From: Brucella sp. BE17
Lineage (GTDB): Bacteria > Pseudomonadota > Alphaproteobacteria > Rhizobiales > Rhizobiaceae
Length of the DNA: 64,000 nt
NCBI RefSeq assembly: GCF_039545455.1
Contig: NZ_CP154467.1
Span: 1,488,001 to 1,552,000 of the forward strand
Direction of reading: 5' to 3'
Of this stretch, positions 3,036 to 26,414 are shown one piece after another (within the stretch, counting starts at the first letter, position 1; each line of letters starts with the position of its first letter). The notes beneath the pieces were generated by a model that made no database searches, was not told the origin of the DNA, and saw only the letters and a program-made list of their open reading frames with translations. A program made the translations under genes and the position numbers.

Positions 3036-3063
3036 TTGACACAGACAGGCCGACCCCTTAGAT
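3036..3063 (+). promoter_or_regulatory. Promoter of tRNA-Leu
   Basis: TTGACA at 3036-3041 and TTAGAT at 3058-3063, spaced 16 bases, place the transcription start a few bases before the mature tRNA 5' end at 3075. The -35 is a perfect housekeeping consensus. Confidence 0.75.
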
Positions 3064-3074
3064 GGGTCCTCGTC

Positions 3075-3161
3075 GCCCAGATGGCGGAATTGGTAGACGC
3101 ACCAGCTTCAGGTGCTGGCGCTCGCAAGGGCGTGGAGGTTCGAGTCCTCTTCTGGGCACCA
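3075..3161 (+). tRNA. tRNA-Leu (anticodon CAG), CCA encoded
   Basis: Class II tRNA: acceptor stem GCCCAGA pairs with TCTGGGC, the anticodon stem CCAGC/GCTGG holds loop TTCAGGT with anticodon CAG, there is a long variable arm, and the T-arm GGTTCGAGTCC is present. Discriminator A is at 3158 and genomic CCA at 3159-3161. It serves as the integration site of the island: the direct repeat starts in its T-arm and the gene is kept whole at this end. Confidence 0.97.
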
Positions 3162-3232
3162 TTTCCAAGTCTTCAGACCACTACCAAGGTCCAGAAGCAT
3201 CCCAAAAAGCCCGCGTAAGCGGGCTTTTTTGT
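3143..3232 (+). repeat. attL: left direct repeat (tRNA-Leu 3' end plus terminator)
   Basis: Ninety bases starting AGTCCTCTTCTGGGCACC in the tRNA T-arm and ending in the terminator T-run. The copy at 22520-22607 matches apart from a 2-base gap (GG of TGGGC) and three substitutions, with a long identical stretch around CAAGTCTTCAGACCACTACC. This is the classic target duplication left by a tRNA-specific tyrosine integrase. Confidence 0.9.
3204..3231 (+). terminator. Terminator of tRNA-Leu
   Basis: Stem AGCCCGC/GCGGGCT with a 4-base loop, an upstream A-run and a T6 tail: a textbook rho-independent terminator. It forms part of the duplicated att sequence. Confidence 0.9.
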
Positions 3233-3270
3233 ATCTTACAGTCTGACGTCGTCCGATTGCATCCGAGAAA

Positions 3271-3335
3271 TTTGTTGGTACATTTGTTGGTATCGAGCCC
3301 AATACCAACAAATTCTGGAAAAGTGATACCAACAA
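3271..3335. promoter_or_regulatory. Cluster of integrase arm-type/operator sites before the integrase gene
   Basis: TTTGTTGGTA occurs directly at 3271-3280 and 3283-3292 and inverted at 3303-3312 and 3327-3335. The middle pair makes a perfect 12-bp inverted repeat (3282-3293 and 3302-3313, 8-base spacer). The last site overlaps the integrase start codon. A further direct copy lies inside the gene at 3415-3424. Similar sites recur near the right end. I infer binding by the integrase or its regulator, giving both recombination-complex assembly and autorepression. Confidence 0.7.
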
Positions 3336-4546
3336 TGGCGCTGACCGACACGGCAATTAAGGCTTTAAAACAAGGTGTTAGCGCAAGAAAATACAGCGAC
3401 GCCAATGGCCTGTTTTTGTTGGTACAGCCTAACGGTTCAAAACTCTGGCGATACGCCTACCGATTCCAGGGGAAACAAAAGACGTTATCGCTCGGATCAT
3501 ACCCTTTGGTGAGTTTGCGCGATGCACGCACCAAACGTGATGAAGCCCGCGAATTGCTGACACAACAAATCGACCCTGGCGAGAAACTCAAATCAGATAA
3601 GTTGCAGCGCCTCATTCAGTCTGCAATCACCTTCACCCATGTCGCCGATGAATTCGTAGAAAAATTGGAATGTGAAGGTAAAGCTGCAGTCACGCTCACC
3701 AAGAAGAAATGGCTTCTGGATATGGCTAAGGCCGACTTTGGTCAAAAACCAATCCATGAAATTAAAGCGCCCGAAATTCTGCTAGCACTCAAGAAGGTTG
3801 AGGCGAAAGGTAATTACGAAACCGCCCGCCGACTTCGATCCACCATCAGTCAAGTCTTCCGCTATGCCATCGCTACTGCACGCGCGGACAATGACCCTAC
3901 ATTTGGACTGCGCGGCGCTCTGATTGCTCCCACTGTCACGCATAGAGCCGCAATCACTGAGAAAGATAAATTCACCGGCCTAATACGATCCATATGGGAA
4001 TATGAAGGAAACCCAGAGACGCGTATTGCCCTTAAATTGATGGCGCTGATGTTTCCGCGCCCAGGCGAACTACGACAAGCATGCTGGAAAGAATTCGATC
4101 TTGATAAGAATGTTTGGACAATCCCCGCATCGCGGATGAAAATGCGTCGCGAACACAAAAAATACCTGAGCCCGCTAGTCAGAGAATTATTGTCCGAGCT
4201 TAAACAATATTCCGGTTACACAGATCTTGCCTTTCCAGGCGTTCATTCCCGGCATCGCCCAATGAGCGAAAATACGCTGAACAGCGCATTACGACGCATG
4301 GGCTTTACAGCTGATGAGGCAACGTCCCATGGCTTCCGAGCCAGCGCATCAAGCTTGCTCAATGAAAGTAATCTCTGGTCTGCGGATGCCATTGAAGCAG
4401 AACTTGCACATGTTGGTGCTGACGAAGTGCGCCGAGCTTACCACCGCTCCCTCTACTGGGAAGAACGGATCAAGATGATGGAATGGTGGAGCGAAAAAAT
4501 TCAAGGTTTTGCTTTATCCTCCAAACAGGGAGTTACATCATTTTGA
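3335..4546 (+). CDS. Tyrosine-type integrase of P4 family (island integrase)
   Basis: Site-specific recombinase that would integrate and excise the island at tRNA-Leu. The N-terminal arm-binding domain (DUF4102 type) begins MALTDTAIKALK with ARKYSDANGLFLLVQPNGSK at about residues 16-35, and the C-terminal catalytic domain shows PRPGELRQACWKEF (first catalytic Arg), HGFRA (HxxR) and the nucleophile region RAYHRSLYWEERIKMM. Its 403 residues are typical. I chose ATG 3335 because the frame upstream runs back through the tRNA and is not coding. It is oriented away from the tRNA, as usual for this family. A TTG start of the next gene overlaps its stop. Confidence 0.93.
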   Translation: MALTDTAIKALKQGVSARKYSDANGLFLLVQPNGSKLWRYAYRFQGKQKTLSLGSYPLVSLRDARTKRDEARELLTQQIDPGEKLKSDKLQRLIQSAITFTHVADEFVEKLECEGKAAVTLTKKKWLLDMAKADFGQKPIHEIKAPEILLALKKVEAKGNYETARRLRSTISQVFRYAIATARADNDPTFGLRGALIAPTVTHRAAITEKDKFTGLIRSIWEYEGNPETRIALKLMALMFPRPGELRQACWKEFDLDKNVWTIPASRMKMRREHKKYLSPLVRELLSELKQYSGYTDLAFPGVHSRHRPMSENTLNSALRRMGFTADEATSHGFRASASSLLNESNLWSADAIEAELAHVGADEVRRAYHRSLYWEERIKMMEWWSEKIQGFALSSKQGVTSF

Positions 4547-7341: not shown

Positions 7342-7458
7342 CACCGCCCGGTCATTTTAGAATTGTTGATAATTGCGTACATCTCGACCGATCGATACGA
7401 TGATATTAATATCTGAAAATGCCCCAAAAAATGCTGGTCTCTCACTATGAGCTAAAAA

Positions 7459-8049: not shown

Positions 8050-8054
8050 AGCTA

Positions 8055-8990: not shown

Positions 8991-9095
8991 ACCCTTTGTT
9001 TCTGCTCTTATAATTTAATATCAGCTTTAAACAATAACTTGCTCAATAGTTGATTGTCGCAAACGGTTCAGCCATAAATTGGTGAAACACGGGGC

Positions 9096-11798
9096 ATGCG
9101 ACTTACTATGATGAATCCCACCGAAATTGCCGATGCGCTCGATCAAATTGCCAGTGCGCCATTTAATCCAGCAGAGTTCGGCTTTGCTTTTGCTGAAGCG
9201 ACGGACAATGCCAAAGCAACGATCTCAAAGCTGCGGACAACGACCAATAAATCGGATTTGCCGGGTGGTGTTCTTCTCAATCGCAAATTCCATTTTGCCC
9301 CGGCTGACCAAGGCAAGGTCAGCGAAGCGCTGGATGCCTTACGCGACAGCAAAAAGACCGTATCCGCAAAGCCAGCTATTTTAATTGCGACCGATGGCGA
9401 AACCATTGCCGCAGGGCACCCCAAAAGCGGTGACACACTGCATTGCCCATTTTCCGAGCTGGGGCTTCATTTTGGTTTCTTTCTGCCAGCTGCGGGCAAG
9501 GATCGCTATAAGCCTGCCGAAGAAAATCCAGTTGATGTCAAAGCGGCAGGAAAACTTGCCAAGCTCTACGACACATTAACGCGTGCTAACCCGGAATGGG
9601 CAGCAGATGAGCGCCGCCATGATATGAACCTATTCATGACGCGGCTGATCTTCTGCCTGTTTTCCGAAGATGTTGGCATATTCAGCGAAAACCAGTTTTC
9701 CCACGCTGTGTTTTCCTACAGTGGCAATAAGGGCGAACACGCGCATTCGACAATAATTAGCGCGTTCTCCGCGATGAACCTACCAAAAGACCAGCGCAAG
9801 GAATTGCCTGGCTGGGTAGCCGATTTTGAGTATGTGAACGGTGGACTCTTTGCTGGGCACATTGATGCACCACATTTTGATCCGCTCTCATTCCGCTACC
9901 TGCGCGATGCGTGCGATCTGGATTGGAAACTCATCAATCCAGATATTTTCGGCTCGATGATCCAGTCAATCGCCGATCCTTCTGCGCGATCCGAGTTGGG
10001 CATGCATTATACCTCGGTGCCAAACATCATGAAGGTACTGGGTCCGTTGTTTCTAGACGATCTGGATGATGCGATTGAAAAGGCCAATGACAAGTTGCCT
10101 GCCCTTCGTGCCTTATTGCAGCGGCTGGCGCATATAAAAGTGTTTGACCCTGCCTGTGGTTCAGGAAACTTTCTTGTTGTTGCATACCGCGAGTTGCGTG
10201 AGCGAGAGATACACATCCTGCAAAAAATTGAAAAGATCACTGGCAACAAGCAGAATGAATTGTGGTCGTCGGTCCCACTCTCAAATTTCTATGGCATTGA
10301 AATAACTGATTTTGCCGCTGAAACCGCAAAGTTGGCTCTGTTCATTGCAGAATATCAGGCTAATGCGCGGTTTAGAGATGTATTTGGCCGTATGCCCGCT
10401 CTACTGCCTCTTCGTGACGGCGGTAATATTGTGCAGGATAACGCACTACGCCGAGATTGGGATCAAGTTTGCCCACCACCACAAGACGGTGAAGAGGTCT
10501 ATATCGCTGGTAATCCTCCGTTTTTGGGTTCGACCTTTCAATCGAAAGAGCAAAAGGCCAATCTAGCTTCTGTTTTCGCCAAGCATATTAAAAACTTTGC
10601 CGCATTTGATTTTGTATCTGCGTGGTTTTTTAAGGCGTCTCGCTATATTCGCGGGCGCAATGCTAAAGCTGCTTTGGTATCAACTAATTCCATTTGCCAG
10701 GGGCAGTCTGTCCCCGCACTTTGGCCCCATATTCTCAAAACTGATCTTGAAATTGGCTTTGCTCATCGCAATTTCAAATGGCGCAACAATGCTTCAGCAA
10801 ATGCTGCCGTAATTTGTTCAATCATTGGGTTGCGTAACCGTTCCGCTGCCACAAAAATGCTGTTCGATGAAGAACTCTCAACTAAAGTAGTTAACATCAA
10901 TCCATACCTCCTCGAAGGCCCCACAATTTACGTCGAAAAATCGAGTAGAAACTATTTTGGGTTACCCCATATGAATTATGGGAATAAACCGGTTGATGGC
11001 GGAGAACTCATTCTTAATACCGAGCAAAGAAACCGTATTTTATTAGAGAACCCGACAGCAGAGCGGTTCATTCGCCGTTTCATGGGATCACAGGAAGTCG
11101 TAAGAGGTATTGAACGCTATTGCATTTGGATCAGCGACGAAGAGTTAGAATTGGCTCGTTCGTTACCTGCTGTTAATCAACGTATTAAAGCCACACGTAT
11201 TGCGCGACTGGCCATGAAAGACCCGGGGGGCGTTGAACTAGCCGAACGTCCTCATCAATTTAGGGAACACATGGCTCCAAGAAACCACGCCATTCTTGTT
11301 CCAAGCGTTACTTCTGAACGCCGGCCCTATCTGCCGGTTGTTCGCGTCGAAGCTGATGTGATTTCATCAAACCTAAACCAAGTCCTCTATGACGCGCCGG
11401 ATTGGTGTATTGCACTGATTGCTTCGCGCCTGCATCTGGTATGGATCGCAACCGTTTGCGGAAAACTGAAATCCGATTTCCGCTATTCCAACACTTTAGG
11501 CTGGAACACATTTCCAGTGCCCAAATTTTCCGCAGAACAGCTTGAGCAACTTACAGCCTCAGCGCGGCAGATATTAAGAACCCGCTATCAGCATCATCCC
11601 AAAACCATTGCCGATCTTTATGATCCCGACAAAATGCCAGACGATCTGCGTGCCGTTCACAAGACCAATGATGAGCTGCTGGAGACCATGTATATTGGGC
11701 GGCCATTCCGCAGCGATACCGAGCGGCTGGAAAAGCTGTTCAAGCTCTATTCAGCTCGAGTAGAGAAAAAGACCAAGGGGGGCGTAAATCATGGTTGA
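9096..11798 (+). CDS. MmeI-like class I SAM-dependent DNA adenine methyltransferase
   Basis: 900 residues. After an N-terminal region of about 140 residues and a helical segment comes the SAM motif VFDPACGSGNFLV (about 349-361) and the catalytic motif AGNPPFLGS (NPPF about 473-476), typical of N6-adenine methyltransferases of the MmeI/type IIG group. The C-terminal half resembles target-recognition and helical domains. I cannot see a clear MmeI nuclease D-Xn-ExK site in the N-terminus, so it may be methylation-only. ATG at 9096, 9108 or 9111 are all possible starts. Its end overlaps the helicase gene by eight bases, linking it to the helicase and GIY-YIG nuclease as one operon. Confidence 0.88.
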   Translation: MRLTMMNPTEIADALDQIASAPFNPAEFGFAFAEATDNAKATISKLRTTTNKSDLPGGVLLNRKFHFAPADQGKVSEALDALRDSKKTVSAKPAILIATDGETIAAGHPKSGDTLHCPFSELGLHFGFFLPAAGKDRYKPAEENPVDVKAAGKLAKLYDTLTRANPEWAADERRHDMNLFMTRLIFCLFSEDVGIFSENQFSHAVFSYSGNKGEHAHSTIISAFSAMNLPKDQRKELPGWVADFEYVNGGLFAGHIDAPHFDPLSFRYLRDACDLDWKLINPDIFGSMIQSIADPSARSELGMHYTSVPNIMKVLGPLFLDDLDDAIEKANDKLPALRALLQRLAHIKVFDPACGSGNFLVVAYRELREREIHILQKIEKITGNKQNELWSSVPLSNFYGIEITDFAAETAKLALFIAEYQANARFRDVFGRMPALLPLRDGGNIVQDNALRRDWDQVCPPPQDGEEVYIAGNPPFLGSTFQSKEQKANLASVFAKHIKNFAAFDFVSAWFFKASRYIRGRNAKAALVSTNSICQGQSVPALWPHILKTDLEIGFAHRNFKWRNNASANAAVICSIIGLRNRSAATKMLFDEELSTKVVNINPYLLEGPTIYVEKSSRNYFGLPHMNYGNKPVDGGELILNTEQRNRILLENPTAERFIRRFMGSQEVVRGIERYCIWISDEELELARSLPAVNQRIKATRIARLAMKDPGGVELAERPHQFREHMAPRNHAILVPSVTSERRPYLPVVRVEADVISSNLNQVLYDAPDWCIALIASRLHLVWIATVCGKLKSDFRYSNTLGWNTFPVPKFSAEQLEQLTASARQILRTRYQHHPKTIADLYDPDKMPDDLRAVHKTNDELLETMYIGRPFRSDTERLEKLFKLYSARVEKKTKGGVNHG

Positions 11799-13863
11799 AG
11801 TTGTAAGCATGGCCTATGGCCGCACGGGTGCATCGAAAACAACCAATGCGCTGGGACAGAGACCGATGCAGGAACGCGCCTACGCGGCGCGCGGCGCGCA
11901 GTTTCTGCTTTTGAAAGCGCCACCCGCCGCTGGCAAAAGTCGCGCCTTGATGTTTGTCGCACTTGATAAGATGAACCATCAGGGACTGGCAAAGACGATT
12001 GTCTGCGTACCGGAAACCTCTATTGGCAGCTCGTTTCGCTCAACCGATCTTACGTCTTACGGCTTCGATGCCGACTGGGAAGTCGAGCCGCGCTGGAACC
12101 TGTGTCTGAGTGGCACGGAAGACGGCAGCACCAGCCAGAAGGTAAAGGCATTTCAAGACTTTTTGGCATCCGATGCGAAAGTGCTGATCTGCACCCATGC
12201 GACCTTCCGCTTTGGTTTTGATGCCATTGACAAAGAACAAGGTATTGAAGCCTTCGACAATGTTTTCATCGCTATTGATGAATTCCATCATGTTTCTGCC
12301 GCTGACAATAACCGTCTTGGTGAAATTCTGCGCCGTTTGATCACGCGCGAGCAAGCGCATGTCATGGCCATGACTGGCTCTTACTTTCGTGGCGATGCGG
12401 TTCCGGTGTTGCGTCCAGAGGATGAAGACAAGTTCACCACCGTCACCTATTCCTATTATGAACAGTTGGACGGCTATGAGTTCCTAAAATCGCTCGGCAT
12501 TAATTATAGTTTCTATAAAGGAAACTATATCAATGGTTTGCCTGAAGTGCTCGATACTGATCTCAAAACCATTATTCATATTCCGCATCGCGGATCAGCT
12601 GAAGCTTTTGATGATAAGTATGGCGAGGTGGGGCGCATTCTCGATCTGATCGGCAAACATATTGGCCGTGAACCGGAGACGGGCTTTGATCTGGTTGAAA
12701 CAACAGACGGGCGCGTCCTGAAAATCGCCGATCTGGTCGATGACGGGCCAGAGCGCGATATCGTCAAAGCCGCACTATCGCGTGAAATAAAAGCAAAAGA
12801 CGGCAAACGTGACGATAAAGCCGACCGTGAAAAGGTGGATGTAATCATTGCGCTGGGCATGGCCAAAGAGGGCTTTGACTGGGTCTGGTGTGAGCATGCC
12901 CTGACCATTGGCTATCGTGCATCGCTGACCGAGATTATCCAGATTATCGGGCGCGCCACACGCGATGCGCCGGGCAAACTAACTGCGCGCTTCACCAATC
13001 TGGTTGCAGAACCCGGCGTTGAAACCGGCCTTGTTGCAGATGCCGTCAACGATATGCTCAAGGCCATATCAGGCGCTCTCTTAATGGAGCAAGTATTGGC
13101 TCCGAATTTCAAATTCTATCGTCGCGAAGATGGTGACATACGCGATCCGATCAGCGTTGATGGTCAGGGCACAGTTACCATCGGCATCAAGGGCTTGATG
13201 GAGCCACCTACAGATCGCGCACGCGATATTTGTGAAAAAGACATGCATGAGCTGGTTGCCAAAGCCTGTCAGGCGATGGATCGACGCACAGTTGCACCGG
13301 ATGTTGCGCCCGAAGTCGCCAACCAAATGGTGCTGACCGAAATCATCGAACACAGCTATCCCGACCTGAATGCAGATGAGACCGAAGCCATTCGCCAAGA
13401 TCTTGCAGCGCGCATGAATATTTTAACGCTGACACGCCGGGAAGCCGAACAGGGCTTTGCAGAAACATCGGTCGATTATGATAGCGCTGGTCGTGATAAT
13501 GACGACAACGACGCATCGCCGAACACGCTCTTGAGGCTGGTGAAGAAATTTATCAATGTGCAGGAACTTGACATTGATTTGATCGACAGTGTCAACACAT
13601 TCAAAGAACGCTTCGAGATTGCTTCTAAGGCGCTCGATGCGTCAATCTTGCAGCACATCCAGTCTGCAATGGTTGCCCAGCGCATTCAGATGACTGACGA
13701 CGAAGCGCGCACCTTATGGCCACGGATAAAGCGTTTTCGGGCGATTGAGGGCCGTGAACCAAACGTACATTCTGCTGATGCTCTCGAAAAGAGAATGGCT
13801 GAAGCGCTTGCCTGGTTAAAAGCCAAAAAAGCTGAAGCTTTACGCGCCCAAATGGTGAACTAA
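11791..13863 (+). CDS. SF2 DEAD/DEAH-type helicase of the methyltransferase operon
   Basis: 690 residues. Walker A is KAPPAAGKS (about 42-50), motif II is AIDEFHH (about 161-167), motif III is AMTGSYFRGDA, and motif VI is QIIGRATRDAPGK. This is the restriction-type SF2 helicase/translocase pattern, as in type I and III R subunits, but I see no attached nuclease domain. The C-terminal third is helical with no motif known to me. It starts inside the end of the methyltransferase gene and is followed after three bases by the GIY-YIG gene, so nuclease activity is probably supplied by that partner. Confidence 0.9.
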   Translation: MVEVVSMAYGRTGASKTTNALGQRPMQERAYAARGAQFLLLKAPPAAGKSRALMFVALDKMNHQGLAKTIVCVPETSIGSSFRSTDLTSYGFDADWEVEPRWNLCLSGTEDGSTSQKVKAFQDFLASDAKVLICTHATFRFGFDAIDKEQGIEAFDNVFIAIDEFHHVSAADNNRLGEILRRLITREQAHVMAMTGSYFRGDAVPVLRPEDEDKFTTVTYSYYEQLDGYEFLKSLGINYSFYKGNYINGLPEVLDTDLKTIIHIPHRGSAEAFDDKYGEVGRILDLIGKHIGREPETGFDLVETTDGRVLKIADLVDDGPERDIVKAALSREIKAKDGKRDDKADREKVDVIIALGMAKEGFDWVWCEHALTIGYRASLTEIIQIIGRATRDAPGKLTARFTNLVAEPGVETGLVADAVNDMLKAISGALLMEQVLAPNFKFYRREDGDIRDPISVDGQGTVTIGIKGLMEPPTDRARDICEKDMHELVAKACQAMDRRTVAPDVAPEVANQMVLTEIIEHSYPDLNADETEAIRQDLAARMNILTLTRREAEQGFAETSVDYDSAGRDNDDNDASPNTLLRLVKKFINVQELDIDLIDSVNTFKERFEIASKALDASILQHIQSAMVAQRIQMTDDEARTLWPRIKRFRAIEGREPNVHSADALEKRMAEALAWLKAKKAEALRAQMVN

Positions 13864-13866
13864 ACC

Positions 13867-15093
13867 ATGTCACCACGCCCTAGTCTTGATGACATTTTTA
13901 ATGAGCCTGATGAATTCGGTCTACTCGATGTCCGCTCTAAAGCACGCGCTGGTCAATCCACAGATGATGAGCGCAACGTCGCAATCGTCCATCAAACCAA
14001 CGCTTTCTTCGAAAGCCATCGCCGTCTTCCTGATGGCAATGCAGATGATCATTATGAAATGCGACTTGGCACGATCTGGGAAAAGATTTCAGCCAATCCG
14101 ACAGAGGCGATGCATGCAGCCGATACGCATGGCTTGCTGCAAAGTTTCAATCTAAGAAAAACGGAACGAACTCTTAGCTGGCGCGATGACGTAGCAGCCG
14201 ATGAAATTCCGGCTTCACTTGATGATATTTTCGGTGAGGATGGCATTGACGTGGATGCAGATCATCTCTCAATCCGCAATATAACCCCTGCGGCTATGCG
14301 CAATGTGCCTGACCACCGAGCCGAAAATCGCCCATGCCGGGATTTTGCCAGTTTTGCAGATCGTTTTGAAGAGATACAGGAAGCCCTCGACAGCGGAAAG
14401 CGCGTTGCCACTATTGTGGAAGACCGAGCAATCATCGAACCCTTTGAGGGCGATTTTTTCATTCGCAATGGGTTGCTCGCCTATATTGCTGAAAAGACAG
14501 AAATGACATCGCGAGGTGGATCACGCGATCATCGTCTGCGGATAATATTCTCTAATGGTACAGAAAGCGATCCGCTGATGTCTTCATTCCGCAAATCGCT
14601 AAATGAGGACAAGACTGCCCGTGTCATCCAACGCGAAGGCCTTGGGCCGCTCGATAAAAAGTGGCAATCAGACAGCCCTGACATTTCTGGCACAATCTAC
14701 GTTGCAAGGAGCCTTTCGAAAGATCCGGCAATAGCTGAAGTCAGCAACATTTTATACAAAATCGGGGTCACATCGCAGGATGTCAAAAGACGCCTAGCCG
14801 ATGCACGCAATGATCCGACATTCCTGATGGCACCGGTTGAGCTCGTTGCAACTTATGAACTTAAAAACCTTGCGCGTTCTAAAGTCGAGGAGTTGCTACA
14901 TCGCTTTTTCGAAGCTGCGAGGCCTGCTGATTTATTTGTTACAGACCGATTCGGCAAAAAAATCCGTCCACGCGAATGGTTTTACGTGTTGCCAGAACAT
15001 GTGAGCCAAGCAGCCAAACTCATTCAAAATGGAATGCTGCATGAGTGTTATTATGATGTGCAGTCGCAGCGAATAGTTAAAAAGTCCGCTTAA
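13867..15093 (+). CDS. GIY-YIG (T5orf172/MUG113-like) nuclease of the methyltransferase operon
   Basis: 408 residues. The N-terminal two-thirds are polar, with two repeats of the SLDDIF type (near 6-11 and 117-122). The C-terminal domain (about 270-390) is a GIY-YIG nuclease of the T5orf172 type: GTIYVARS, then ILYKIGVTSQDVKRRL with the catalytic Arg, then the SKVEELLHRFF glutamate segment and the closing PREWFYV. It begins three bases after the helicase stop, giving a methyltransferase-helicase-nuclease operon that I read as a restriction-modification-like defence system. It does not match the layout of classical type I, II or III systems. Confidence 0.87.
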   Translation: MSPRPSLDDIFNEPDEFGLLDVRSKARAGQSTDDERNVAIVHQTNAFFESHRRLPDGNADDHYEMRLGTIWEKISANPTEAMHAADTHGLLQSFNLRKTERTLSWRDDVAADEIPASLDDIFGEDGIDVDADHLSIRNITPAAMRNVPDHRAENRPCRDFASFADRFEEIQEALDSGKRVATIVEDRAIIEPFEGDFFIRNGLLAYIAEKTEMTSRGGSRDHRLRIIFSNGTESDPLMSSFRKSLNEDKTARVIQREGLGPLDKKWQSDSPDISGTIYVARSLSKDPAIAEVSNILYKIGVTSQDVKRRLADARNDPTFLMAPVELVATYELKNLARSKVEELLHRFFEAARPADLFVTDRFGKKIRPREWFYVLPEHVSQAAKLIQNGMLHECYYDVQSQRIVKKSA

Positions 15094-15468
15094 ACGACTC
15101 GCTCCAATTTGAATTGCTATATGAATGGTCGTCCCTCATGATTTATCCAAGACGCACCGTTTGTTAGAATATCTGCTTTGCGCCACGACCGACCAGCCCT
15201 CTGCGTTCATATTCGAGTTTGTCTACTTAGGGGGGGCGCAGGCAGACAGTCCGATGTCCGGTTATCGATAGGCAAAAGCAGACATCAAAAAATCTGGTGC
15301 CGCGCTCCGATTTCGGCCCAAGGCCGGCGATGCTGATCGCATGGAATATAAGAGTACCGACAGGTACTGGCATTAGACCGGTCGCAATCAATGCACAATA
15401 ATCGCTCATTTTGGCTCGCCGATTTTTTTGGAACAAGCTATGGTTACCTCGCGGAAGTGGGGTGAGCG
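15094..15468. other. Intergenic spacer between restriction-like operon and Gabija-like pair
   Basis: 375 bases without a supportable gene. It contains a run of seven G at 15230-15236 and degenerate sequence of the GCAGACA/CCGGTT type that looks like decayed intergenic DNA. The promoter of the following gene must lie here, but I cannot assign a convincing -35/-10 pair. Confidence 0.5.
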
Positions 15469-17097
15469 ATGTATATCGAAAAGGTCAAAATCAAGAATTT
15501 CAAATGCTTTGAAGGTTGGTTCGAGGTTGATTTCAATCAGGGTGTCAATATCATCGTTGGCAACAATGAGGCCGGAAAATCCACACTGCTCGAAGCGATC
15601 CATCTATGCCTGACGGGCATGCTGAATGGGAAATATCTTCGCAATGAACTATCTCCCTATCTCTTTAACAGGAATATCGAGCGGGCGTATCTGGAGAGCC
15701 TCACCACGAAAGCCCCACTACAACCGCCGGAGATACAGATTGAGCTATTTCTTGACGGTGATGGCGATGCACTGGAAGAACTTCGTGGAAACTGCAACTC
15801 CGAGAAGAACGACAAGGCGCGTGGCCTCCTTTTCTCAATCGAGTTCGATAAGAAATACGACGGCGCCTATACCGAGTTGCTGAAGGGCAAAGAGATCAAC
15901 TCGATACCCTTGGAATTCTATCAGGTACAATGGTCGGAATTCTCCCGCCAACCGGCAATGGCACGCACCATCCCTGTCAAGTCGGCCTTCATAGATTCAA
16001 CTAGCATGCGTGTGCAGAGCGGGTCGGATATGTACATCTCCCGCATCGTCAGAGAGTTTTTGGACGACAAGGAACGAGTTGCGATATCCCAAGCCCACCG
16101 CAAGCTGAAAGACGCTTTCAAGGCCGACGGCAATGTGAGCGCAATTAATGAAAGATTAGCGGAGGCGGCGAAGATCAGCCGAAAAAAGGTCAGCATCTCG
16201 GTCGATATGTCGTCTCATAACGCCTGGGAAAACAGCCTCATGACTTATATTGAGGATGTGCCCTTCCACTATATAGGCAAGGGTGAGCAGTGCATCATCA
16301 AAACGCGGCTCGCGCTGAGCAGCAAAAAGAATAGCGAAGCCACCGTTTTGCTGATCGAAGAACCGGAAAACCACCTCTCGCACTCGAAGCTCAACCAGCT
16401 CATCAGCGATATCAGTACCGACAATAGCGGCAAGCAGGTCATCATCACCACGCATAGCAGCTTCGTCGCGAACAAACTTGGACTGGACCATCTGATCCTG
16501 TTACGGGAAGCGAAGGTCACACGGATCAAAGATCTGGACGCGAGCGACTTTTTCCATAAGCTGCCTGGCTATGACACGCTGCGTCTCGTGTTGTCGCAGA
16601 AGTCGATCCTTGTAGAGGGCGATGCGGACGAGTTGGTTGTCCAACGGGCCTACATGGATACCTACGGGGGAAAATTGCCGATCGATGACGAGATTGACGT
16701 CATCTCGGTCGGCCTTTCGTTCCTGCGTTTTCTCGAACTGGCGAGGGCGCTGAAAATCCCCGTTGTGGTCGTAACCGACAACGACGGGGATACTGTTGCG
16801 CTTGAAAGGAAGTACGCCAAATACAAGGACGTCGATCATATCACAATCTGTTATGACCCTGTGGTGGATAAGGGCGACTTGGATCTCGGCGGCAAGCCTT
16901 TCAACTATAACACCCTTGAGCCGAAGCTGGTCAAATCCAATAGTGTTGAGACTTTCAACAGGCTGTTCGGTACCAAGCATGATCTCGATAACCTTCATCG
17001 TTATATGAAGAACAACAAGACCGAGTGCGCGCTGGCCATTTTCTCGGCGAAGGCGAAAATCAATTATCCGAAATATATTCTGGATGCGATCGCCTAA
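15469..17097 (+). CDS. gajA: Gabija-like GajA: OLD-family ATPase-TOPRIM nuclease
   Basis: 542 residues. An SMC/RecF-like ATPase starts IEKVKIKNFKCFEGW, with Walker A GNNEAGKST (31-39), ABC signature region GKGEQCIIKTRLAL (271-284), Walker B VLLIEEPENHLSH (293-305) and H-loop TTHS (327-330). The C-terminal TOPRIM has the glutamate in LVEGDADE (about 383) and the metal-binding DNDGD (about 437-441). GajA nicks DNA and works with the GajB helicase in anti-phage defence. It is slightly shorter than the prototype (about 578 from memory). The stop overlaps the next start (TAATG). Other OLD-family systems remain possible, but the coupled UvrD-like partner favours Gabija. Confidence 0.88.
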   Translation: MYIEKVKIKNFKCFEGWFEVDFNQGVNIIVGNNEAGKSTLLEAIHLCLTGMLNGKYLRNELSPYLFNRNIERAYLESLTTKAPLQPPEIQIELFLDGDGDALEELRGNCNSEKNDKARGLLFSIEFDKKYDGAYTELLKGKEINSIPLEFYQVQWSEFSRQPAMARTIPVKSAFIDSTSMRVQSGSDMYISRIVREFLDDKERVAISQAHRKLKDAFKADGNVSAINERLAEAAKISRKKVSISVDMSSHNAWENSLMTYIEDVPFHYIGKGEQCIIKTRLALSSKKNSEATVLLIEEPENHLSHSKLNQLISDISTDNSGKQVIITTHSSFVANKLGLDHLILLREAKVTRIKDLDASDFFHKLPGYDTLRLVLSQKSILVEGDADELVVQRAYMDTYGGKLPIDDEIDVISVGLSFLRFLELARALKIPVVVVTDNDGDTVALERKYAKYKDVDHITICYDPVVDKGDLDLGGKPFNYNTLEPKLVKSNSVETFNRLFGTKHDLDNLHRYMKNNKTECALAIFSAKAKINYPKYILDAIA

Positions 17098-18236
17098 TGA
17101 TGGGACCGAATAAGCTCGTCATTGCCGCCGCAGGCTCGGGGAAGACCACCTACCTCGTCAGGCAGGCGCTTGCGGTTGAACAAAAACGAGTCCTCATCAC
17201 CACCTACACGGAATCGAACGAAGAAGAGATCCGGCGCAAATTTTTCGAAATCAATGGCTCCGTTCCGCGTAACGTGCGTATCCAGACCTGGTTCAGTCTG
17301 CTGATCGAGCACGGCATCAAGCCCTTTCAAGGCAAGCTGTTCGATTGGGATGTCGCTGGCATGCTTCTGGTTTCGCAGAGATCCGGTTTTCGCGGGCGCG
17401 ACCGGCAAGGCCGTCCCATGTATTGGGGTGAGGAAGATTTCAGACGCTGCTACTTCGACGGTCGAAATCGCGTGTATTCAGACAAATTGTCGAGGCTGAT
17501 GATAAGGTGTAACGAGGCATCTGACGGTGCTGTCATCGAGCGGCTTTCCCGTATCTATCCCTTTATTTTCGTAGATGAGGTGCAAGATCTGGCAGGCCAC
17601 GACCTCGACATTTTGGTAGCGCTCTTCCAAAGCCGCGCCGACGTCGTCATGGTGGGTGATCCCCGTCAAGTCACCTATGTGACTCATCTGGAGGCTCGCC
17701 TTAAGAAGTACAGGGATGGCGGCATTGCCGACTTCATTCGGGCGGAGCTTCCCCGAAGGGTAACCTGCGATATTGATGTTACCAGCCTCATGACATCTCA
17801 CCGAAATAGCACCGCTATCTGCGAAGTGTCGTCGAAGCTCTATCCAAAATTAGCTGCTATGACCGCTTGCAAATGCCCCGACTGTAGGCAACCAACCCCT
17901 GTTGATGCAGGTCTTTTCATCGTCCGGCGAAAGGATTTGCCCCGTTATCTCGAGACAAGGCGACCTGTGCAGCTCCGATGGAGCTCGAACGTTAAGATCG
18001 CATCTCCCGATCTGCCGGTGCTAACGTTTGGACGGTCAAAGGGCCTAGGTTTCGACCGCGTCATTATTTATCCCACCAAAGAAATGATGGACTGGCTGAA
18101 GAATGGCCAATCGCAGTTGAAGGCCGAAACCCGCGCAAAACTCTATGTCGGTCTCACCCGTGCGAGGCATGCGGTGGCAGTGGTATACGACCCCGCCGAT
18201 GGGGAGGCCGTTGCAGGGTTTACTGTTTTCGAGTAG
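17097..18236 (+). CDS. gajB: Gabija-like GajB: UvrD/PcrA-type SF1 helicase, short form
   Basis: 379 residues from ATG 17097, one base overlapping the gajA stop; the frame open further upstream is antisense-free read-through within gajA. Walker A is AAAGSGKTTYL (10-20), motif Ia TTYTESNEEEIRRKF, motif II FVDEVQDL (158-165), motif III VGDPRQ, and motif VI KLYVGLTRARHAV near the C-terminus. A small cysteine cluster, CKCPDC, lies about residue 285 and may bind zinc. GajB prototypes are near 490 residues, so this is compact, yet all helicase motifs are present. It should sense nucleotide or DNA-end state and activate GajA cutting during phage infection. Confidence 0.87.
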   Translation: MMGPNKLVIAAAGSGKTTYLVRQALAVEQKRVLITTYTESNEEEIRRKFFEINGSVPRNVRIQTWFSLLIEHGIKPFQGKLFDWDVAGMLLVSQRSGFRGRDRQGRPMYWGEEDFRRCYFDGRNRVYSDKLSRLMIRCNEASDGAVIERLSRIYPFIFVDEVQDLAGHDLDILVALFQSRADVVMVGDPRQVTYVTHLEARLKKYRDGGIADFIRAELPRRVTCDIDVTSLMTSHRNSTAICEVSSKLYPKLAAMTACKCPDCRQPTPVDAGLFIVRRKDLPRYLETRRPVQLRWSSNVKIASPDLPVLTFGRSKGLGFDRVIIYPTKEMMDWLKNGQSQLKAETRAKLYVGLTRARHAVAVVYDPADGEAVAGFTVFE

Positions 18237-18427
18237 GGAAATCGCCGAAACATGTTTCCGGAGCCACCTCTATGCTAGAGGCACCAACCGCGAACTGCCC
18301 TAGTCAGTAGTAATTGTCCGCTTTCAGGAGATTCAAGTTAAGGGCTCAACGGCCACAGTAGACGCGAAGCCGTCCTTCGTTCCGTCCCGCTAGACGGCAA
18401 ATTGGGGCCTTTTCCAGCCCGTCCGCT

Positions 18428-19624
18428 CTATCGCACGTCGTGATCATCATAGTAGTCCTCGGGCTCAAACACTTCGACATCGCCAAGTTCAAGGTCGATG
18501 TTGTTCAGGTCGATTTCACATGACTCGAATTCGATCTCCTGATCCTCGCCTCCCAGATCGTGCAACCTGACCGTGACCGTAGCGCGAATATCATGCGTTT
18601 CGTCCACTTCGACCGTTCGTCCGCCCATGCTGATTGATTCCCGATCGATGCTGTCCCAAACAGAGAAATTCAGATCGACATGAATGCGCAAGTCGATCTG
18701 GAGAGGCAGACTCAGGACAGCGGTTACAACACCTTGCCCATCGGGCTCGCTGGTCTCGATGATGTCGACATCGGCATTGTCTGCCCACTCGACATTTCGT
18801 AACTCAGGGCCATAGGGAATGGCCTCCATTTCACCTGACGTTGCATATCCGTTCACATCGACATCAAGATTGGTGACCACGCCTTCTAGTTCGTTCCGGA
18901 TTTCAGCACGACCATCGCTATCTGCTGCAAGCCAGCCCAAAATCGACTGCCTGACTACGAGCGGTGGATCATTGAGGAGCGCCAGCGCTGTTTCGATTTC
19001 CGGAACGAGATAGAGGCGCTGCGATTGTTCACAGAATTTTCGCCAGTCACCGTCTTTGGACACGACCAAGAATGATGTTTCGCGTACACTGGCAGTCGCC
19101 TCCAAAGCATGAAGCGCCAAAGCGTCGGGGAATTCGTCTTTCTTCTTGCCCGTACCAAACGGCGCTTGCCCACTGAAGTAGCCGTCAAATATTTCCTTGG
19201 TCGTGACTAGGTCCTCATCCGAAAGAATTTCACATCCGGTGTCCTGAACGTATTGCGCCAACCGCGCCTGAGCTGCTGCATTAGCGGTCTGCGTCCCAGT
19301 GATTTGATCCAGCAACTGATCTCTGGTGGGCTGGGCCGTTTCAAATGCAAAGAGAGCCTCTCCGATCGCCTTGCGAGCAGTACGGAGGGCATCTTCGGCT
19401 CTTTTCTCCAGATGGCCAAGAATCTCTTTGGCCACGGTTCCAGACAGTAGGAAATCGAACGGCCTGCTGTTGAGGATCGCGACAGTTGCAAGCGGGGCGG
19501 CGCTAAGCTGGAGGCCTTTCTCGTCGAAAATATTGGTGTCAATCGTCAGCGCTGAGATTGTTTGATTCCGCAACAAGTCGAGTAACTCATTTTCTGGCGG
19601 GATAGGCATTAGGTCCGCTTTCAA
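18428..19624 (-). CDS. PIN-domain protein (putative ribonuclease)
   Basis: 398 residues. The N-terminal half is a PIN-like nuclease fold: the first acidic motif TIDTNIFDEKG (Asp about 28), then KKKDEFPDALALHAL with two acidic residues, then VVSKDGDWRKFC (about 195-206). This pattern matches the DUF4935 kind of PIN domain. The C-terminal half (about 220-398) is acidic and beta-rich with no motif I recognise, and could sense or hold substrate. It stands alone between the Gabija-like pair and the retron-like gene, facing the Gabija genes. No antitoxin-sized partner is visible beside it. It may be a stand-alone defence RNase. Confidence 0.78.
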   Translation of the reverse strand: MKADLMPIPPENELLDLLRNQTISALTIDTNIFDEKGLQLSAAPLATVAILNSRPFDFLLSGTVAKEILGHLEKRAEDALRTARKAIGEALFAFETAQPTRDQLLDQITGTQTANAAAQARLAQYVQDTGCEILSDEDLVTTKEIFDGYFSGQAPFGTGKKKDEFPDALALHALEATASVRETSFLVVSKDGDWRKFCEQSQRLYLVPEIETALALLNDPPLVVRQSILGWLAADSDGRAEIRNELEGVVTNLDVDVNGYATSGEMEAIPYGPELRNVEWADNADVDIIETSEPDGQGVVTAVLSLPLQIDLRIHVDLNFSVWDSIDRESISMGGRTVEVDETHDIRATVTVRLHDLGGEDQEIEFESCEIDLNNIDLELGDVEVFEPEDYYDDHDVR

Positions 19625-20110
19625 ACTGGGTGAGCGTCGGATAAGTCATCAGCGTAACAACAAGCGTCTGGGGTGTCTACAGAACTCCCAGGCATTCGCT
19701 TCTTTCCTGAATGATACCTCGGCCTGATGCTAGTGCTTCGCTACGTGAGCCGCCCTAGCCTGAGCTTCATGTAGCTATGTCAGATCACAGTTACGTCAGA
19801 CCGCTTTCGGCATACGCCTTCCCGTTTCGGTCATTCGGCTAGTTCCACGCGACGCCCGAAAACTGTCGTTCTTTAATTCGCGAGGAAGACCTGGACCGAG
19901 GTCCAGAAAGCAATGGCTGCCATCCGCCCTGCTGAAGTCTTTCGAAGAATACGACGACCCTTTGACCGTGCGAATCTACTTTTTCCAAAGGATTCGGTAC
20001 CGCTGACATCTTCGTGACGCGCCGCGCCCTATAGCCGATAGAGAGAAACTTACCGTAGATCAGTGCTGAAACCGCTTGTGTTATCCTTGCTATTCTGTCT
20101 ACTGAAGGGC
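19625..20110. other. Intergenic region upstream of the retron-like locus
   Basis: 486 bases with no supportable gene on either strand. It must carry the divergent promoter of the PIN gene and the promoter of the retron-like transcript, but no clear consensus promoter was found. Confidence 0.5.
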
Positions 20111-20247
20111 GGCTTGCGGATAGATTTTACTGTGGGGGTTCTTCACAGGTGAAAGCAATACGGCCTCAACGCTACCTACAGAGAGCCGGCAAGAATATGA
20201 TGATATCGTCAACAATACGCTAAATCGCGTAGGAGTATCCGCAAGCC
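20111..20247 (+). ncRNA. Candidate retron msr-msd RNA
   Basis: The 137-base region is closed by an exact 12-bp inverted repeat, GGCTTGCGGATA (20111-20122) and TATCCGCAAGCC (20236-20247), placed like the a1/a2 repeats of retrons. The right arm ends five bases before the reverse-transcriptase start codon. Directly after the left arm comes GATTTT, which recalls the sequence after a1 in the E. coli Ec67 retron, so G20123 is a candidate branch guanosine. Inside are a CTGTG/CACAG hairpin (msr-like), a CGGCCTC/GAG-A-GCCG hairpin, a GATG/CGTC hairpin and a CCTAC/GTAGG pairing (20175-20179 with 20229-20233). The last overlaps the AGGAG ribosome site, so folding could affect translation. Confidence 0.75.
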
Positions 20248-20252
20248 ACACT

Positions 20253-22013
20253 ATGACAGTCCTTTCCGAAAAGCTGGAGAAGTATAAGAAGGCGGAAGAT
20301 ATTACCGACCTTGCGAAGCTTCTTGAGTTGAAACCATCTCACATCTCATACGCGCTATATAAGCTTGATAAAGCTCCCCAGCCTCCAAAGTACACTGAAT
20401 TTACTGTGCCTAAACGGAATGGAGGCGTTCGCACGATCAAAGCGCCGCATCCGGCGCTCAAGGCTATTCAGACACGTCTTGCAACGGACTTGCTCGAAAT
20501 CGAGCAAATTCTCGAAAAGAGCCGGACGAAGCAACGGGATTGCATACTCGCGCATGGCTTTAAGAAGAAGCTCTCCATTATGACAAATGGGGAAAACCAC
20601 CGTGGGAGAAGATTCGTCTTCAACGTGGATTTAAAGGATTTTTTTCCGACAATAAACTTCGGCCGCGTACGGGGCTTCTTCATCAAACACAAGGATTTCG
20701 AGCTAAAGCCTTACATGGCCACCCTCCTTGCGCAGGCTGCCTGCCATGACAACCAGTTGCCTCAAGGGAGTCCGTGTTCACCAGTCATCTCCAACCTCAT
20801 TGCCAACGTTCTGGACATCCGGCTCAACGAACTCGCCCACCGTTATAATTGCACCTATACCCGGTATGCCGACGATATAACCTTCTCGACCTCCGAGAAA
20901 ACTTTCCCGGCGGCCATAGGGTTGCGCAAGGCCGGAAGTGTCAACTCATGGGAAGCTGGTGCGAAACTTGTAAAGGCAATCAAACGAGCTGGTTTCGAAC
21001 TGAACAGTGTCAAAACCCGCATGCAATTCGACTACTCACGGCAAGAAGTAACGGGTGTTATTGTCAACCAAAAAGTGAATATCCCTTCCGACTATTACGC
21101 CACCGTTGCGGCCATGTGCCACCATCTGTTTATGGATGGAGAATGCTTCATAATGGCCAACGGCGTGAAACAGCCTTTGGCACGTAATAAGCTTCGTGGC
21201 CGCCTCGCGTACATCTATCAGGTCCGTGGAAGAGGTCCTGCTGGCAAACCGTCATCAGAAGATGTCGAAGAAAAACCGAAGGGTGGCAAGCTGTGGGCCA
21301 GCTCAAAGCTTTTCGAGAAGTTTGCGGACTACGTAGACCTCTATGGAAATGAGCGCCCGGTACTTTTATGCGAGGGAGTGACAGACAATATCTATATCAA
21401 GTCTGCACTCCAAGCTCTCGCACCAAAATACCCGACCCTCACAAACCCTACCGGAAACCTGAAGGTTAAACTTTTCAAGTACACCAAAACCTCAGCGGCG
21501 CTGCAGCAATTGAGTGGAGGTACCGGCGAGTTGTTGAAACTTGTAAACACGTACGCCGGCCGTGTCAGAAAATTCAAAAGCGGCGGGAAACAGCCGCTCA
21601 TCATCATCGCAGACTCTGATGTGGGATCTAAGGATCTCTTCAAAGCAGTTGAAAGCAAGAGCAAGAAGGCAATGGGCTCTCAGTCTTGGTATCACCTTGG
21701 ATTAAATCTTTATGTGGTGCCCATTCCAAAGAAAGGTATGGATGAGACCCCTATTGAGAGGCTTTTCGACGAGGCGCTTCTCAAGACAATTTACGATGGC
21801 AAACAATTCAACGATACCAATGCCGACAAGGACGGCAGCAAATTCTATGGCAAGAAGGTCTTCGCGACAAAGGTAGTCGCCGCGAACAAAGCAACCGTCA
21901 ATTTCGGCGGGTTTGAACCACTGCTAGATGCGATTGCCGAGGTGATTGAGCACCACAATGCAAAGGTGCACTCCGTTCCCGTACCTACGCCTGTCGCCGC
22001 CATAGTCTCCTGA
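20253..22013 (+). CDS. Retron-type reverse transcriptase fused to a TOPRIM domain
   Basis: 586 residues. The reverse transcriptase part (about 40-330) has DLKDFFPTI (126-134), QGSPCSPVISN (171-181), the catalytic YADD (205-208) and the retron-typical VTG (266-268). The C-terminal part (about 365-460 onward) is a TOPRIM-like domain with LLCEGVTDNIY (Glu about 374) and LIIIADSDVGS (Asp about 454 and 456). RT-TOPRIM fusions are known from retron Ec67/Eco2, grouped as type I-C from memory; they make msDNA and act against phage. The ribosome site AGGAG lies inside the proposed msd region. All catalytic residues are present. Confidence 0.9.
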   Translation: MTVLSEKLEKYKKAEDITDLAKLLELKPSHISYALYKLDKAPQPPKYTEFTVPKRNGGVRTIKAPHPALKAIQTRLATDLLEIEQILEKSRTKQRDCILAHGFKKKLSIMTNGENHRGRRFVFNVDLKDFFPTINFGRVRGFFIKHKDFELKPYMATLLAQAACHDNQLPQGSPCSPVISNLIANVLDIRLNELAHRYNCTYTRYADDITFSTSEKTFPAAIGLRKAGSVNSWEAGAKLVKAIKRAGFELNSVKTRMQFDYSRQEVTGVIVNQKVNIPSDYYATVAAMCHHLFMDGECFIMANGVKQPLARNKLRGRLAYIYQVRGRGPAGKPSSEDVEEKPKGGKLWASSKLFEKFADYVDLYGNERPVLLCEGVTDNIYIKSALQALAPKYPTLTNPTGNLKVKLFKYTKTSAALQQLSGGTGELLKLVNTYAGRVRKFKSGGKQPLIIIADSDVGSKDLFKAVESKSKKAMGSQSWYHLGLNLYVVPIPKKGMDETPIERLFDEALLKTIYDGKQFNDTNADKDGSKFYGKKVFATKVVAANKATVNFGGFEPLLDAIAEVIEHHNAKVHSVPVPTPVAAIVS

Positions 22014-22519
22014 CCTCAGTCTTTTGTTGTGTTGTTAGGTACGTGATCGGCTTGTAAGTCTGGAATGCAGGCGCGTTGCTGTCGAAGTGTTACGCCCCAC
22101 CTGAAATGGCTACTATTACAATTCGTCGACCCAGAAGCGGACTGTCGGCTACCCGCCCCGAGTTGGACATTCTGCCTCAGAAGGCGAAGGGCTGCTTTCA
22201 GAAAACGCCACACTGGTTTGCTTGGCGGAAATTGCGCAGAGCCGACACACGTCGCGAATTGAGTGGAACCATCTCGCTACACCGTTATAATCAGTATGTG
22301 GCAAGCTTTACGTTCAAGGTGCAACGCCCTCCAGACGCACTTCGCCGATATTGTTTATAACATCTTGTACATAATGCCGCAGCTTTACATAAAGCGGACG
22401 TTCAATTTTATTTCAGGCAAATATCTGGCACATTTCAAAATGTTGGTATATTTGTTGGTACAATGGAAAAATCAAAACATAATAATGCTTTTTAAACAAT
22501 TATTTAGCAGACAATGAAT
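22014..22519. other. Non-coding right end of the island
   Basis: 506 bases after the retron-like gene. Short frames here have no family resemblance or convincing ribosome site. The sequence becomes strongly AT-rich toward the right repeat and holds the arm-type sites listed separately. Confidence 0.55.
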
Positions 22520-22607
22520 AGTCCTCTTCTGCACCATTTACAAGTCTTCAGACCACTACCAAGGTCCAGAAGCACCCCAAAAAGCCCGCGCAAGCGGGCT
22601 TTTTTGT
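22520..22607 (+). repeat. attR: right direct repeat
   Basis: 88-base partner of 3143-3232, from AGTCCTCTTCTGCACC to the terminator T-run. It lacks two of the G bases of the tRNA acceptor strand and differs at three other positions, so this end could not restore a functional tRNA 3' end as it stands. Confidence 0.9.
22579..22606 (+). terminator. Duplicated tRNA terminator at attR
   Basis: Copy of the tRNA-Leu terminator: AGCCCGC/GCGGGCT with loop GCAA and a T-run. It may now insulate the island from the chromosome. Confidence 0.85.
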
Positions 22608-22666
22608 TGTCACGGTTGTTGGTATGACGTGCTTTCTGACCGTTTTTGCAGAAAGCGTTGCTAGCA

Positions 22667-26187: not shown

Positions 26188-26414
26188 AAGGCTATGAGGT
26201 GGCGCGTCGTGTCAACCGGACATGACAGGGATGGTGAACGCAGGAATTTTTCCGGTTTCTTCTTGCGGCCAACGAAACGGCAGACGAGCGCCCTACCTGT
26301 CCGGCACGTCCCTCAACTTAGCCTCACGCGAGGTTACTAACGACAGCACGAGGCTGCATAGCAGCTTCGTGCCATTTAGAATTTCACTTTACGGAATGAC
26401 ACCAGGAGGAACCG

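What the first reader, a model, noticed from the sequence alone, without database searches (positions are those of the whole stretch)
20111..20247. Candidate msr-msd RNA of a retron, closed by an exact 12-bp repeat
GGCTTGCGGATA (20111-20122) and its exact reverse complement TATCCGCAAGCC (20236-20247) enclose 137 bases and end five bases before the reverse-transcriptase ATG. This is where retron a1/a2 repeats are found. The left arm is followed by GATTTT, which resembles, from memory, the Ec67 junction after a1. Several internal hairpins are present, and one pairing covers the AGGAG ribosome site. No msDNA is annotated in a short list of Brucellaceae that I know of.
Basis: partly seen in the sequence, partly recalled or inferred. 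Interest (0 to 1): 0.85.

Follow-up and report, generated by a model that had tools for sequence, protein, structure and literature searches.

The report
Ec67-type retron in a defence island
The stretch is the RNA gene of a retron, a bacterial reverse-transcriptase element of the known Ec67 (Eco2) type whose enzyme would copy the RNA into a short branched DNA and likely guards the cell against phages; the type is already known, and this is a well-supported new member from a relative of Brucella and Ochrobactrum, sitting on a likely mobile island of defence genes.

Summary
Window 20111-20247 is the msr-msd RNA gene of a type I-C (Ec67/Eco2-family) retron; the gene at 20253-22013 is its RT-Toprim fusion. 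A covariance model from 68 relatives, built without the window or its same-arm relatives, hits exactly 20110-20248 (63.5 bits, E 3e-14) and nothing else in the 64 kb. In those relatives 12 of 13 arm pairs and 5 of 7 msr-hairpin pairs change on both sides. Landmarks of the solved Eco2 msDNA reproduce on an Ec67 locus and, transferred, predict branch G 20123 and an RT-DNA of about 75 nt copied from 20160-20234. Corrections: AGGAG (20231-20235) is the conserved end of the msd, not a masked ribosome site; and an Ec67-family RT is already named in another Brucellaceae genus. The retron is the last gene of a 19-kb island at tRNA-Leu(CAG) with Gabija and restriction genes; one congener has the same island with this cassette replaced. 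msDNA and phage defence are untested. New member of a known kind.

The parts
20111..20122 (+). a1 arm of the retron RNA (GGCTTGCGGATA)
   Evidence: exact complement of a2; homologous helix covaries in 68 relatives
20123..20123 (+). predicted branching guanosine (equivalent of rG15 of Eco2)
   Evidence: same place as G15 on Ec67 locus L103, where the published landmarks reproduce (PMC12405507); inferred for the window
20130..20148 (+). msr stem-loop (CTGTGGGG-GTT-CTTCACAG)
   Evidence: MFE fold; homologous helix covaries
20149..20159 (+). 3' tail of msr (GTGAAAGCAAT), equivalent of ssRb
   Evidence: alignment to the model and Eco2 landmarks; inferred
20160..20234 (-). msd: the + strand RNA is the predicted template of a ~75-nt reverse-transcribed DNA whose first base is opposite A20234
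   Evidence: transfer of Eco2 landmarks; the 3' end is a prediction and may be off by a few bases
20216..20231 (+). TACGC-TAAATC-GCGTA hairpin in the msd (5' end of the predicted RT-DNA)
   Evidence: MFE folds of the RNA and of the predicted DNA; TATGC/GCATA in L012
20236..20247 (+). a2 arm (TATCCGCAAGCC)
20253..22013 (+). RT-Toprim fusion protein, 586 aa (RT about residues 1-330, YADD at 205-208; Toprim about 365-575)
   Evidence: PADLOC RT-Toprim_I-C E 1.3e-210; NCBIfam NF038237 655.5 bits, cut-off 450; Ec67 protein 9i2f E 1.6e-114 over residues 5-574
3143..3230 (+). left attachment-site repeat: 3' end of tRNA-Leu(CAG) and downstream terminator
22520..22607 (+). right attachment-site repeat, end of the island (94% to the left copy)
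3062..4546 (+). tyrosine recombinase of the island (ORF as called; overlaps the tRNA, true start lies downstream)
   Evidence: PF13356, PF22022, PF00589
15469..18236 (+). Gabija pair: GajA 15469-17097, GajB 17025-18236 (neighbouring defence system, not part of the retron)
   Evidence: PADLOC E 3.4e-230 and 7.1e-140
18428..19624 (-). PIN-domain protein between Gabija and the retron
   Evidence: PF16289 E 1.1e-21

Best explanation
The window holds a type I-C (Ec67/Eco2-family) retron: a 137-base msr-msd RNA gene closed by the a1/a2 repeats and, five bases downstream, an RT-Toprim fusion gene that likely uses the branching G predicted at 20123 to prime a predicted ~75-nt branched DNA, and that would release its Toprim nuclease when a phage attacks that DNA. 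Shown by sequence here: the RNA gene, its two covarying helices, the full-length RT-Toprim gene with YADD and five Toprim metal residues, and their order. Inferred from solved and tested Eco2 (PMC12405507): 2',5' priming, RT-DNA ends, a self-inhibited RT-msDNA complex, RNase activity of freed Toprim, phage defence. The retron lies in a likely integrative island at tRNA-Leu(CAG), next to Gabija.
For: Protein: PADLOC RT-Toprim_I-C 698.7 bits over residues 3-575; NCBIfam 'retron Ec67 family RNA-directed DNA polymerase/endonuclease' 655.5 bits against a cut-off of 450; phmmer to solved Ec67 over residues 5-574. Eco2 residues named in the paper and kept in the window: F46>F50, Y199-D202>205-208, H281>H290, E374, D378, D460/D462>D454/D456, E515>E502. 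RNA: held-out model hit at 20110-20248, E 3e-14, the only match at E <= 10 in 64 kb and the only match at E <= 0.001 in its genome (150 of 337 first-look candidates scored). Pairs: 96.8% of 1360 cells paired, against 26-43% when slid by 1-3 columns; 326 cells changed on both sides, shuffles mean 92.8, 0 of 500 as high; covariation score 0 of 500 as high. In 18 distinct close sequences including the window: 97.2% paired, 9 of 20 pairs with two-sided changes, 0 of 500 shuffles as high (alignment fitted to the model). R1 also finds the RNA in 23 of 26 loci outside the model at E <= 2.4e-9 (one of these, L130, is a near copy of a model row). Fold z -4.42.
Against: No msDNA, RNA or phage data exist for this locus in what I searched. 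The rows of A3 were picked by a script that required arm pairing, so the covariation of helix 1 is partly selected (helix 2 was not selected on, and the window was held out). One measure, the number of pairs with any two-sided change (17 of 20), was reached by 97 of 500 shuffles and proves nothing by itself. RNAalifold on A3 gives 11 of the 13 arm pairs and all 7 hairpin pairs, but also two pairs that compete with the arm. The window scores second lowest of 20 close sequences with R1. Several Eco2 contact residues differ: R332 (trimer loop; aligned to E340 in a gappy stretch), S513 (P500), R70, T249, R264, H387, K418, R555, K557, so the Eco2 trimer may not carry over. The paper's catalytic K562 could not be placed: L103 has Asp at 562. 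Rfam has no match to 19800-20500 even at E <= 10. No Shine-Dalgarno at a usual distance was seen.
Confidence: 0.95

Rival explanations
1. The RNA and protein are a retron by descent, but the locus no longer makes msDNA or defends (a decaying cargo gene).
For: R1 scores the window second lowest of 20 close sequences; no ribosome site at a normal distance; 2 of 35 genomes of the genus have such an RT, own included, the other being a 41% relative.
Against: The frame is open over 586 aa with no stops; YADD and the five placed metal residues are kept; both helices are intact; the 27 homologues at 62-88% identity aligned in A2 run 581-607 aa, though one search also lists shorter ones that were left out of A2.
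Confidence: 0.08
2. The inverted repeat is only a leader structure or attenuator of the downstream gene, not a reverse-transcribed RNA.
For: It lies directly before an ORF, and leaders can fold similarly.
Against: The whole 139-position pattern, with invariant A-G-A at the a1 junction and GAG-T at the a2 junction, is shared with the Ec67 locus whose msDNA structure is solved; in that locus the RNA ends 37 bases before the RT start (a2 end 2954, ATG 2992), unlike a translational leader.
Confidence: 0.02
3. The RT belongs to another class (DRT, group II-like, or a TIR/protease retron) and the repeat is incidental.
For: The RT domain also matches TIR and protease retron models and weakly Drt2 and group II models.
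Against: Those matches stop at about residue 328 or fall far below cut-offs (TIR retron 292.1 of 600 bits, group II 47.6 of 300, Drt2 35.7 of 390), whereas the I-C model covers 3-575.
Confidence: 0.01

Closest known systems
Retron-Eco2 (Ec67), type I-C, E. coli (PMC12405507; PDB 9i2f, 9lm3)
   Same: RT-Toprim fusion of 586 aa; order a1 - G-ATTT - one msr stem-loop - tail - msd - GAG - a2; YADD and five placed Toprim metal residues
   Different: Arms of another sequence (GGCTTGCGGATA against ACGCATGTAGGCA); predicted RT-DNA ~75 nt with a hairpin at its 5' end, against 67 nt; RNA 5 bases from the ATG, against 37 in L103; trimer-loop Arg332 and several RNA-contact residues not kept
Ec67-family retrons of rhizobia (L011 Mesorhizobium sp. 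STM 4661, L013 Aliihoeflea sp. 2WW, L012 Mesorhizobium MAG; P0003 Paenochrobactrum pullorum)
   Same: 66-85% identical proteins; identical 11-nt arm core in L011-L013
   Different: msd sequence and length; P0003 known here only as a protein
   Same: type I-C RT with its own RNA found by R1 (55.9 bits), arms GCTCGCGGATA/TATCCGCGAGC
   Different: 41% protein identity, so likely a separate acquisition, with a compensated arm pair

Membership tests
Retron (general) | reverse transcriptase of the retron class with YADD | tested here: met
Retron (general) | ncRNA beside the RT with a1/a2 arms, junction G, msr stem-loop and msd | tested here: met
   branch G by position only
Retron (general) | branched msDNA with a 2',5' bond made in cells | not testable with these tools
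   needs a bench test
Type I-C / Ec67 (Eco2) family | RT fused to a C-terminal Toprim domain over full length | tested here: met
   RT-Toprim_I-C over 3-575, NF038237 655.5 bits over cut-off 450, Ec67 chain over 5-574; Pfam itself lists no Toprim domain
Type I-C / Ec67 (Eco2) family | Toprim metal residues E374, D378, D460, D462, E515 | tested here: met
   E374, D378, D454, D456, E502; each the same in 41 of 41 rows
Type I-C / Ec67 (Eco2) family | further active-site residues S513 and K562 of the paper | tested here: inconclusive
   S513 aligns to P500; K562 could not be placed since L103 has Asp at 562
Type I-C / Ec67 (Eco2) family | 3:3 trimer held by msrRNA, with loop Arg332 | tested here: inconclusive
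   Arg332 aligns to E340 in a gappy loop; oligomer state not testable; a trait of Eco2, not known to be one of the whole family
Type I-C / Ec67 (Eco2) family | defence against phage | not testable with these tools
   inferred from Eco2 and from the neighbouring defence genes
DRT2 / group II intron RT | NCBIfam cut-off score | tested here: not met
   Drt2 35.7 of 390 bits; group_II_RT_mat 47.6 of 300
TIR retron (NF042941) | NCBIfam cut-off score | tested here: not met
   292.1 of 600 bits, RT part only

The most novel reading that the evidence does not exclude
The alphaproteobacterial branch of type I-C retrons has rebuilt its DNA sensor: the arm core is fixed (GCTTGCGGATA in 16 of the 102 RTs on the tree, down to 40-45% RT identity) while the msd has been replaced, giving an RT-DNA that begins with its own hairpin and an RT-Toprim lacking the Eco2 trimer arginine, so that the arm sequence itself is read by the protein and the complex senses phage in a way different from the Eco2 trimer.
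Probability: 0.2. Interest if true: 0.5.

Novelty: new member of a known kind. Interest (0 to 1): 0.3.

Why it matters
It shows a complete, well-bounded Ec67-type retron, RNA included, in a relative of Brucella and Ochrobactrum, and gives a covariance model that recognises type I-C retron RNAs from several phyla, where Rfam release 15 has no match to this locus. It also places the retron in an exchangeable cassette of a tRNA-Leu defence island, beside Gabija, another system with a Toprim nuclease.

Tried and rejected
Ribosome-site masking: rejected. Rfam scans gave no retron RNA here. A recurrent Gabija-retron pairing was tested: in a tblastn of the window's GajA, GajB, helicase and T5orf172 proteins against the 132 loci then held (two of them the window's own), none matched at E <= 1e-8, so the neighbourhood is not seen in the flanks held (mostly 1.5-5 kb, some shorter). 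Of four congeners with a second island repeat, one (G605) has a 43% relative of the window's GajA, on another contig than its island. Promoter and terminator scans were no better than shuffles. An empty attachment site was looked for in 29 congener loci; none shows the window's right flank beside tRNA-Leu within about 1.5 kb, so the empty site was not shown and the right border rests on the repeat and on G605. A search of plasmid records to name the organism gave only rhizobia at 60-80% identity.

Rows dropped: of loci L001-L131, L001 is the window's own copy; L002, L004, L005 (match on the other strand of the locus) and L131 (no match) were not scanned for arms and L120 had too little upstream DNA; 119 of the remaining 125 relatives passed the arm score. 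Five of the six failures (L027, L028, L029, L032, L127) were later found by R1; L128 was not. L129 passed the arm score by chance (R1 E 0.15). From 84 de-replicated rows, A3 left out the window, 12 same-arm relatives, L059 and L080 (unusual length) and L129. The first arm scan picked a wrong repeat in some loci and was replaced. The first residue map to Ec67 used a wrong start and was redone. The arm table groups sequences by the very feature it measures and is used only as a description. L147-L149 were fetched and not analysed.

Full report
WHAT IS THERE. GGCTTGCGGATA (20111-20122) and TATCCGCAAGCC (20236-20247) are exact reverse complements spanning 137 bases, and the ATG of a 586-codon gene follows five bases later at 20253. 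Whole-window shuffles show that a 12-bp pair somewhere in 64 kb is ordinary (mean 1.12 in 50), but one in the 320 bases before this gene is rare (21 of 20,000 shuffles). The region folds better than shuffles (z -4.42).

THE PROTEIN. The gene encodes an RT-Toprim fusion: PADLOC RT-Toprim_I-C over residues 3-575 (E 1.3e-210), NCBIfam 'retron Ec67 family' 655.5 bits against a cut-off of 450, and the solved Ec67 protein over residues 5-574 (E 1.6e-114). Pfam sees only the RT part. A protein search reports 3413 relatives at E <= 1e-60 among 7994 scored (best 120 listed); the nearest named ones are from Paenochrobactrum pullorum (85%) and Mesorhizobium sp. M0854 (80%). Among plasmid records 18 of 284 matching records, and among phage records 1 of 51, hold a match over at least 80% of the protein. 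Mapped through an alignment of the 41 rows of A1 to Ec67 (L103), the window keeps F46, the YADD, H281, E374, D378, D460, D462 and E515, and does not keep R332, S513, R70, T249, R264, H387, K418, R555 or K557; K562 of the paper could not be placed (residue roles from PMC12405507).

THE RNA. Loci L001-L131 were collected. A script looked for a1/G/.../GAG/a2 before each RT; 119 of 125 relatives scanned passed. 68 sequences, leaving out the window and the relatives with its arm core, were aligned (A3). With the a1/a2 helix (13 pairs) and the msr hairpin (7 pairs), 96.8% of cells pair, against 26-43% when partners are slid; 12 of 13 and 5 of 7 pairs have two-sided changes; 326 cells change on both sides, against 92.8 in shuffles (0 of 500 as high). 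The bare count of 17 pairs with a two-sided change was reached by 97 of 500 shuffles and carries no weight. RNAalifold, not told the structure, predicts 11 of the 13 arm pairs, all 7 hairpin pairs and two competing pairs at the a2 junction. Because rows were chosen for pairing arms, the clean tests are helix 2 and the held-out window. The model R1 finds the window at exactly 20110-20248 with E 3e-14, alone in 64 kb at E <= 10, and alone in the 3.9-Mb genome at E <= 0.001 (150 of 337 candidates scored). It finds 23 of 26 other loci outside the model at E <= 2.4e-9 (L130 is a near copy of a model row); the misses, L128, L129 (E 0.15) and L131, are distant RTs of 25-30% identity. In 18 distinct close sequences including the window, 9 of 20 pairs show two-sided changes, 0 of 500 shuffles as high, though that alignment is fitted to the model; L133 and L136 each have a compensated arm pair.

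READING THE PARTS. The published Eco2 landmarks (G15 branch, ssRa A16-U19, stem-loop G20-U42, tail G43-U51, 67-nt msd starting opposite an A; PMC12405507: abstract and outline, Results, Discussion) fall into place on L103. Transferred to the window they give branch G 20123, stem-loop 20130-20148, msr tail to 20159, and an msd of 75 bases, 20160-20234. This is a prediction. The predicted RT-DNA begins with a TACGC/GCGTA hairpin; L012 has TATGC/GCATA there, a single compensated pair, so modest support; the minimum-energy DNA folds of L011-L013 differ from one another, and that of L012 does not contain this hairpin.

CORRECTION. AGGAG at 20231-20235 is the end of the msd: GAG before a2 is invariant in 68 of 68 aligned relatives, 17 bases lie between it and the ATG, and GGAG is unpaired in the minimum-energy fold. 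How the RT gene is translated remains open.

MECHANISM (inferred from Eco2). The RT would bind the msr, prime from the branch G and stop near 20160, leaving a branched RNA-DNA that keeps the Toprim domain idle; for Eco2 the isolated Toprim is an RNase, and four sequenced phage escapers carry denB mutations (PMC12405507). RT-DNA length of Eco2 does not depend on RNase H1 (PMC8989520, passages). The missing trimer arginine warns against copying the trimer model unchanged.

CONTEXT. tRNA-Leu(CAG) lies at 3075-3161, a tyrosine recombinase follows, and the tRNA's 3' end with the downstream terminator (3143-3230) is repeated at 22520-22607 (94%). Between them lie a second recombinase, an Mrr-type nuclease, an MmeI-type restriction-methylation protein, a helicase, a T5orf172 protein, Gabija, a PIN protein and, last, the retron. 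In the congener G605 the island matches window 2713-10534 (94%), 11239-15233 (90%) and again 22235-22611 (85%), but the Gabija-PIN-retron stretch is replaced by another Gabija pair and an HNH effector-like protein. Four congeners have a second copy of the repeat about 14-21 kb from the first (G605, G608, G596, G601). Type I-C RTs occur in 2 of 35 genomes of the genus (own and G594, 41% identical), 5 of 199 family genomes and 6 of 397 order genomes, the own genome counted each time; R1 finds 8 of 394 family genomes, own included. The retron is therefore likely a mobile cargo gene.

ARM SEQUENCE. On a tree of 102 RTs, 16 share the arm core GCTTGCGGATA, with two changes of the label (0 of 500 shuffles as low); 14 of them form one supported group. 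Other pairs at 45-50% RT identity differ at 3.8 of 11 arm positions on average. The group was defined by its arms, so this only describes; L136 and L133 show that the stem can change when compensated.

SETTING OF THE GENOME. A metabolic protein of the window is 90% identical to one of Brucella tritici, of the Brucella/Ochrobactrum group, so no bench test with this locus is proposed.

LITERATURE. Searches, seen as listings only: 'retron Brucella' (10 papers), 'retron Mesorhizobium' (9), 'Ochrobactrum msDNA' (0), 'retron Rhizobium reverse transcriptase msr' (15 of 87 listed), 'retron Ec67 msDNA' (11). None of these listings shows a description of an msr-msd in this group; the papers were not opened for that, subscription papers are not held, and a 2020 retron classification paper was not held. 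PMC12548924 and PMC12407980 were seen as passages only and add nothing on type I-C retrons. PADLOC holds msr-msd covariance models (PMC9252829, passages), so the class of RNA is known and this one may already be detected there.

Noticed in passing
window 3075-22607: A 19-kb likely integrative island at tRNA-Leu(CAG) with direct repeats of about 88 bp at both ends.
   Followed up: yes
L180 (G605:C112) 12534-18946: Same island in a congener with the 7-kb Gabija-PIN-retron cassette replaced by a different Gabija pair and an HNH effector-like protein.
   Followed up: partly
window 9096-11798 and 8055-8990: MmeI-type IIG restriction-methyltransferase and Mrr-type nuclease; next to them a helicase (11791-13863) and a T5orf172/MUG113 protein (13867-15093) of unclear role.
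   Followed up: partly
L133 (G594:C1) 1325-1459: A second, distant type I-C retron in the same genus, with a compensated change in its arms.
   Followed up: partly
window 20231-20253: No Shine-Dalgarno at a usual distance before the RT start, and a2 ends five bases before it; how the RT is translated when a2 is paired is unexplained.
   Followed up: no
window 26200-26307 and 33735-33839: Rfam sRNAs Atu_At1 (RF02496) and ar35 (RF02346).
   Followed up: no
L103, protein residue 562: The Eco2 paper names a catalytic K562; the Ec67-like protein read from L103 has Asp there, so numbering or strain may differ.
   Followed up: no
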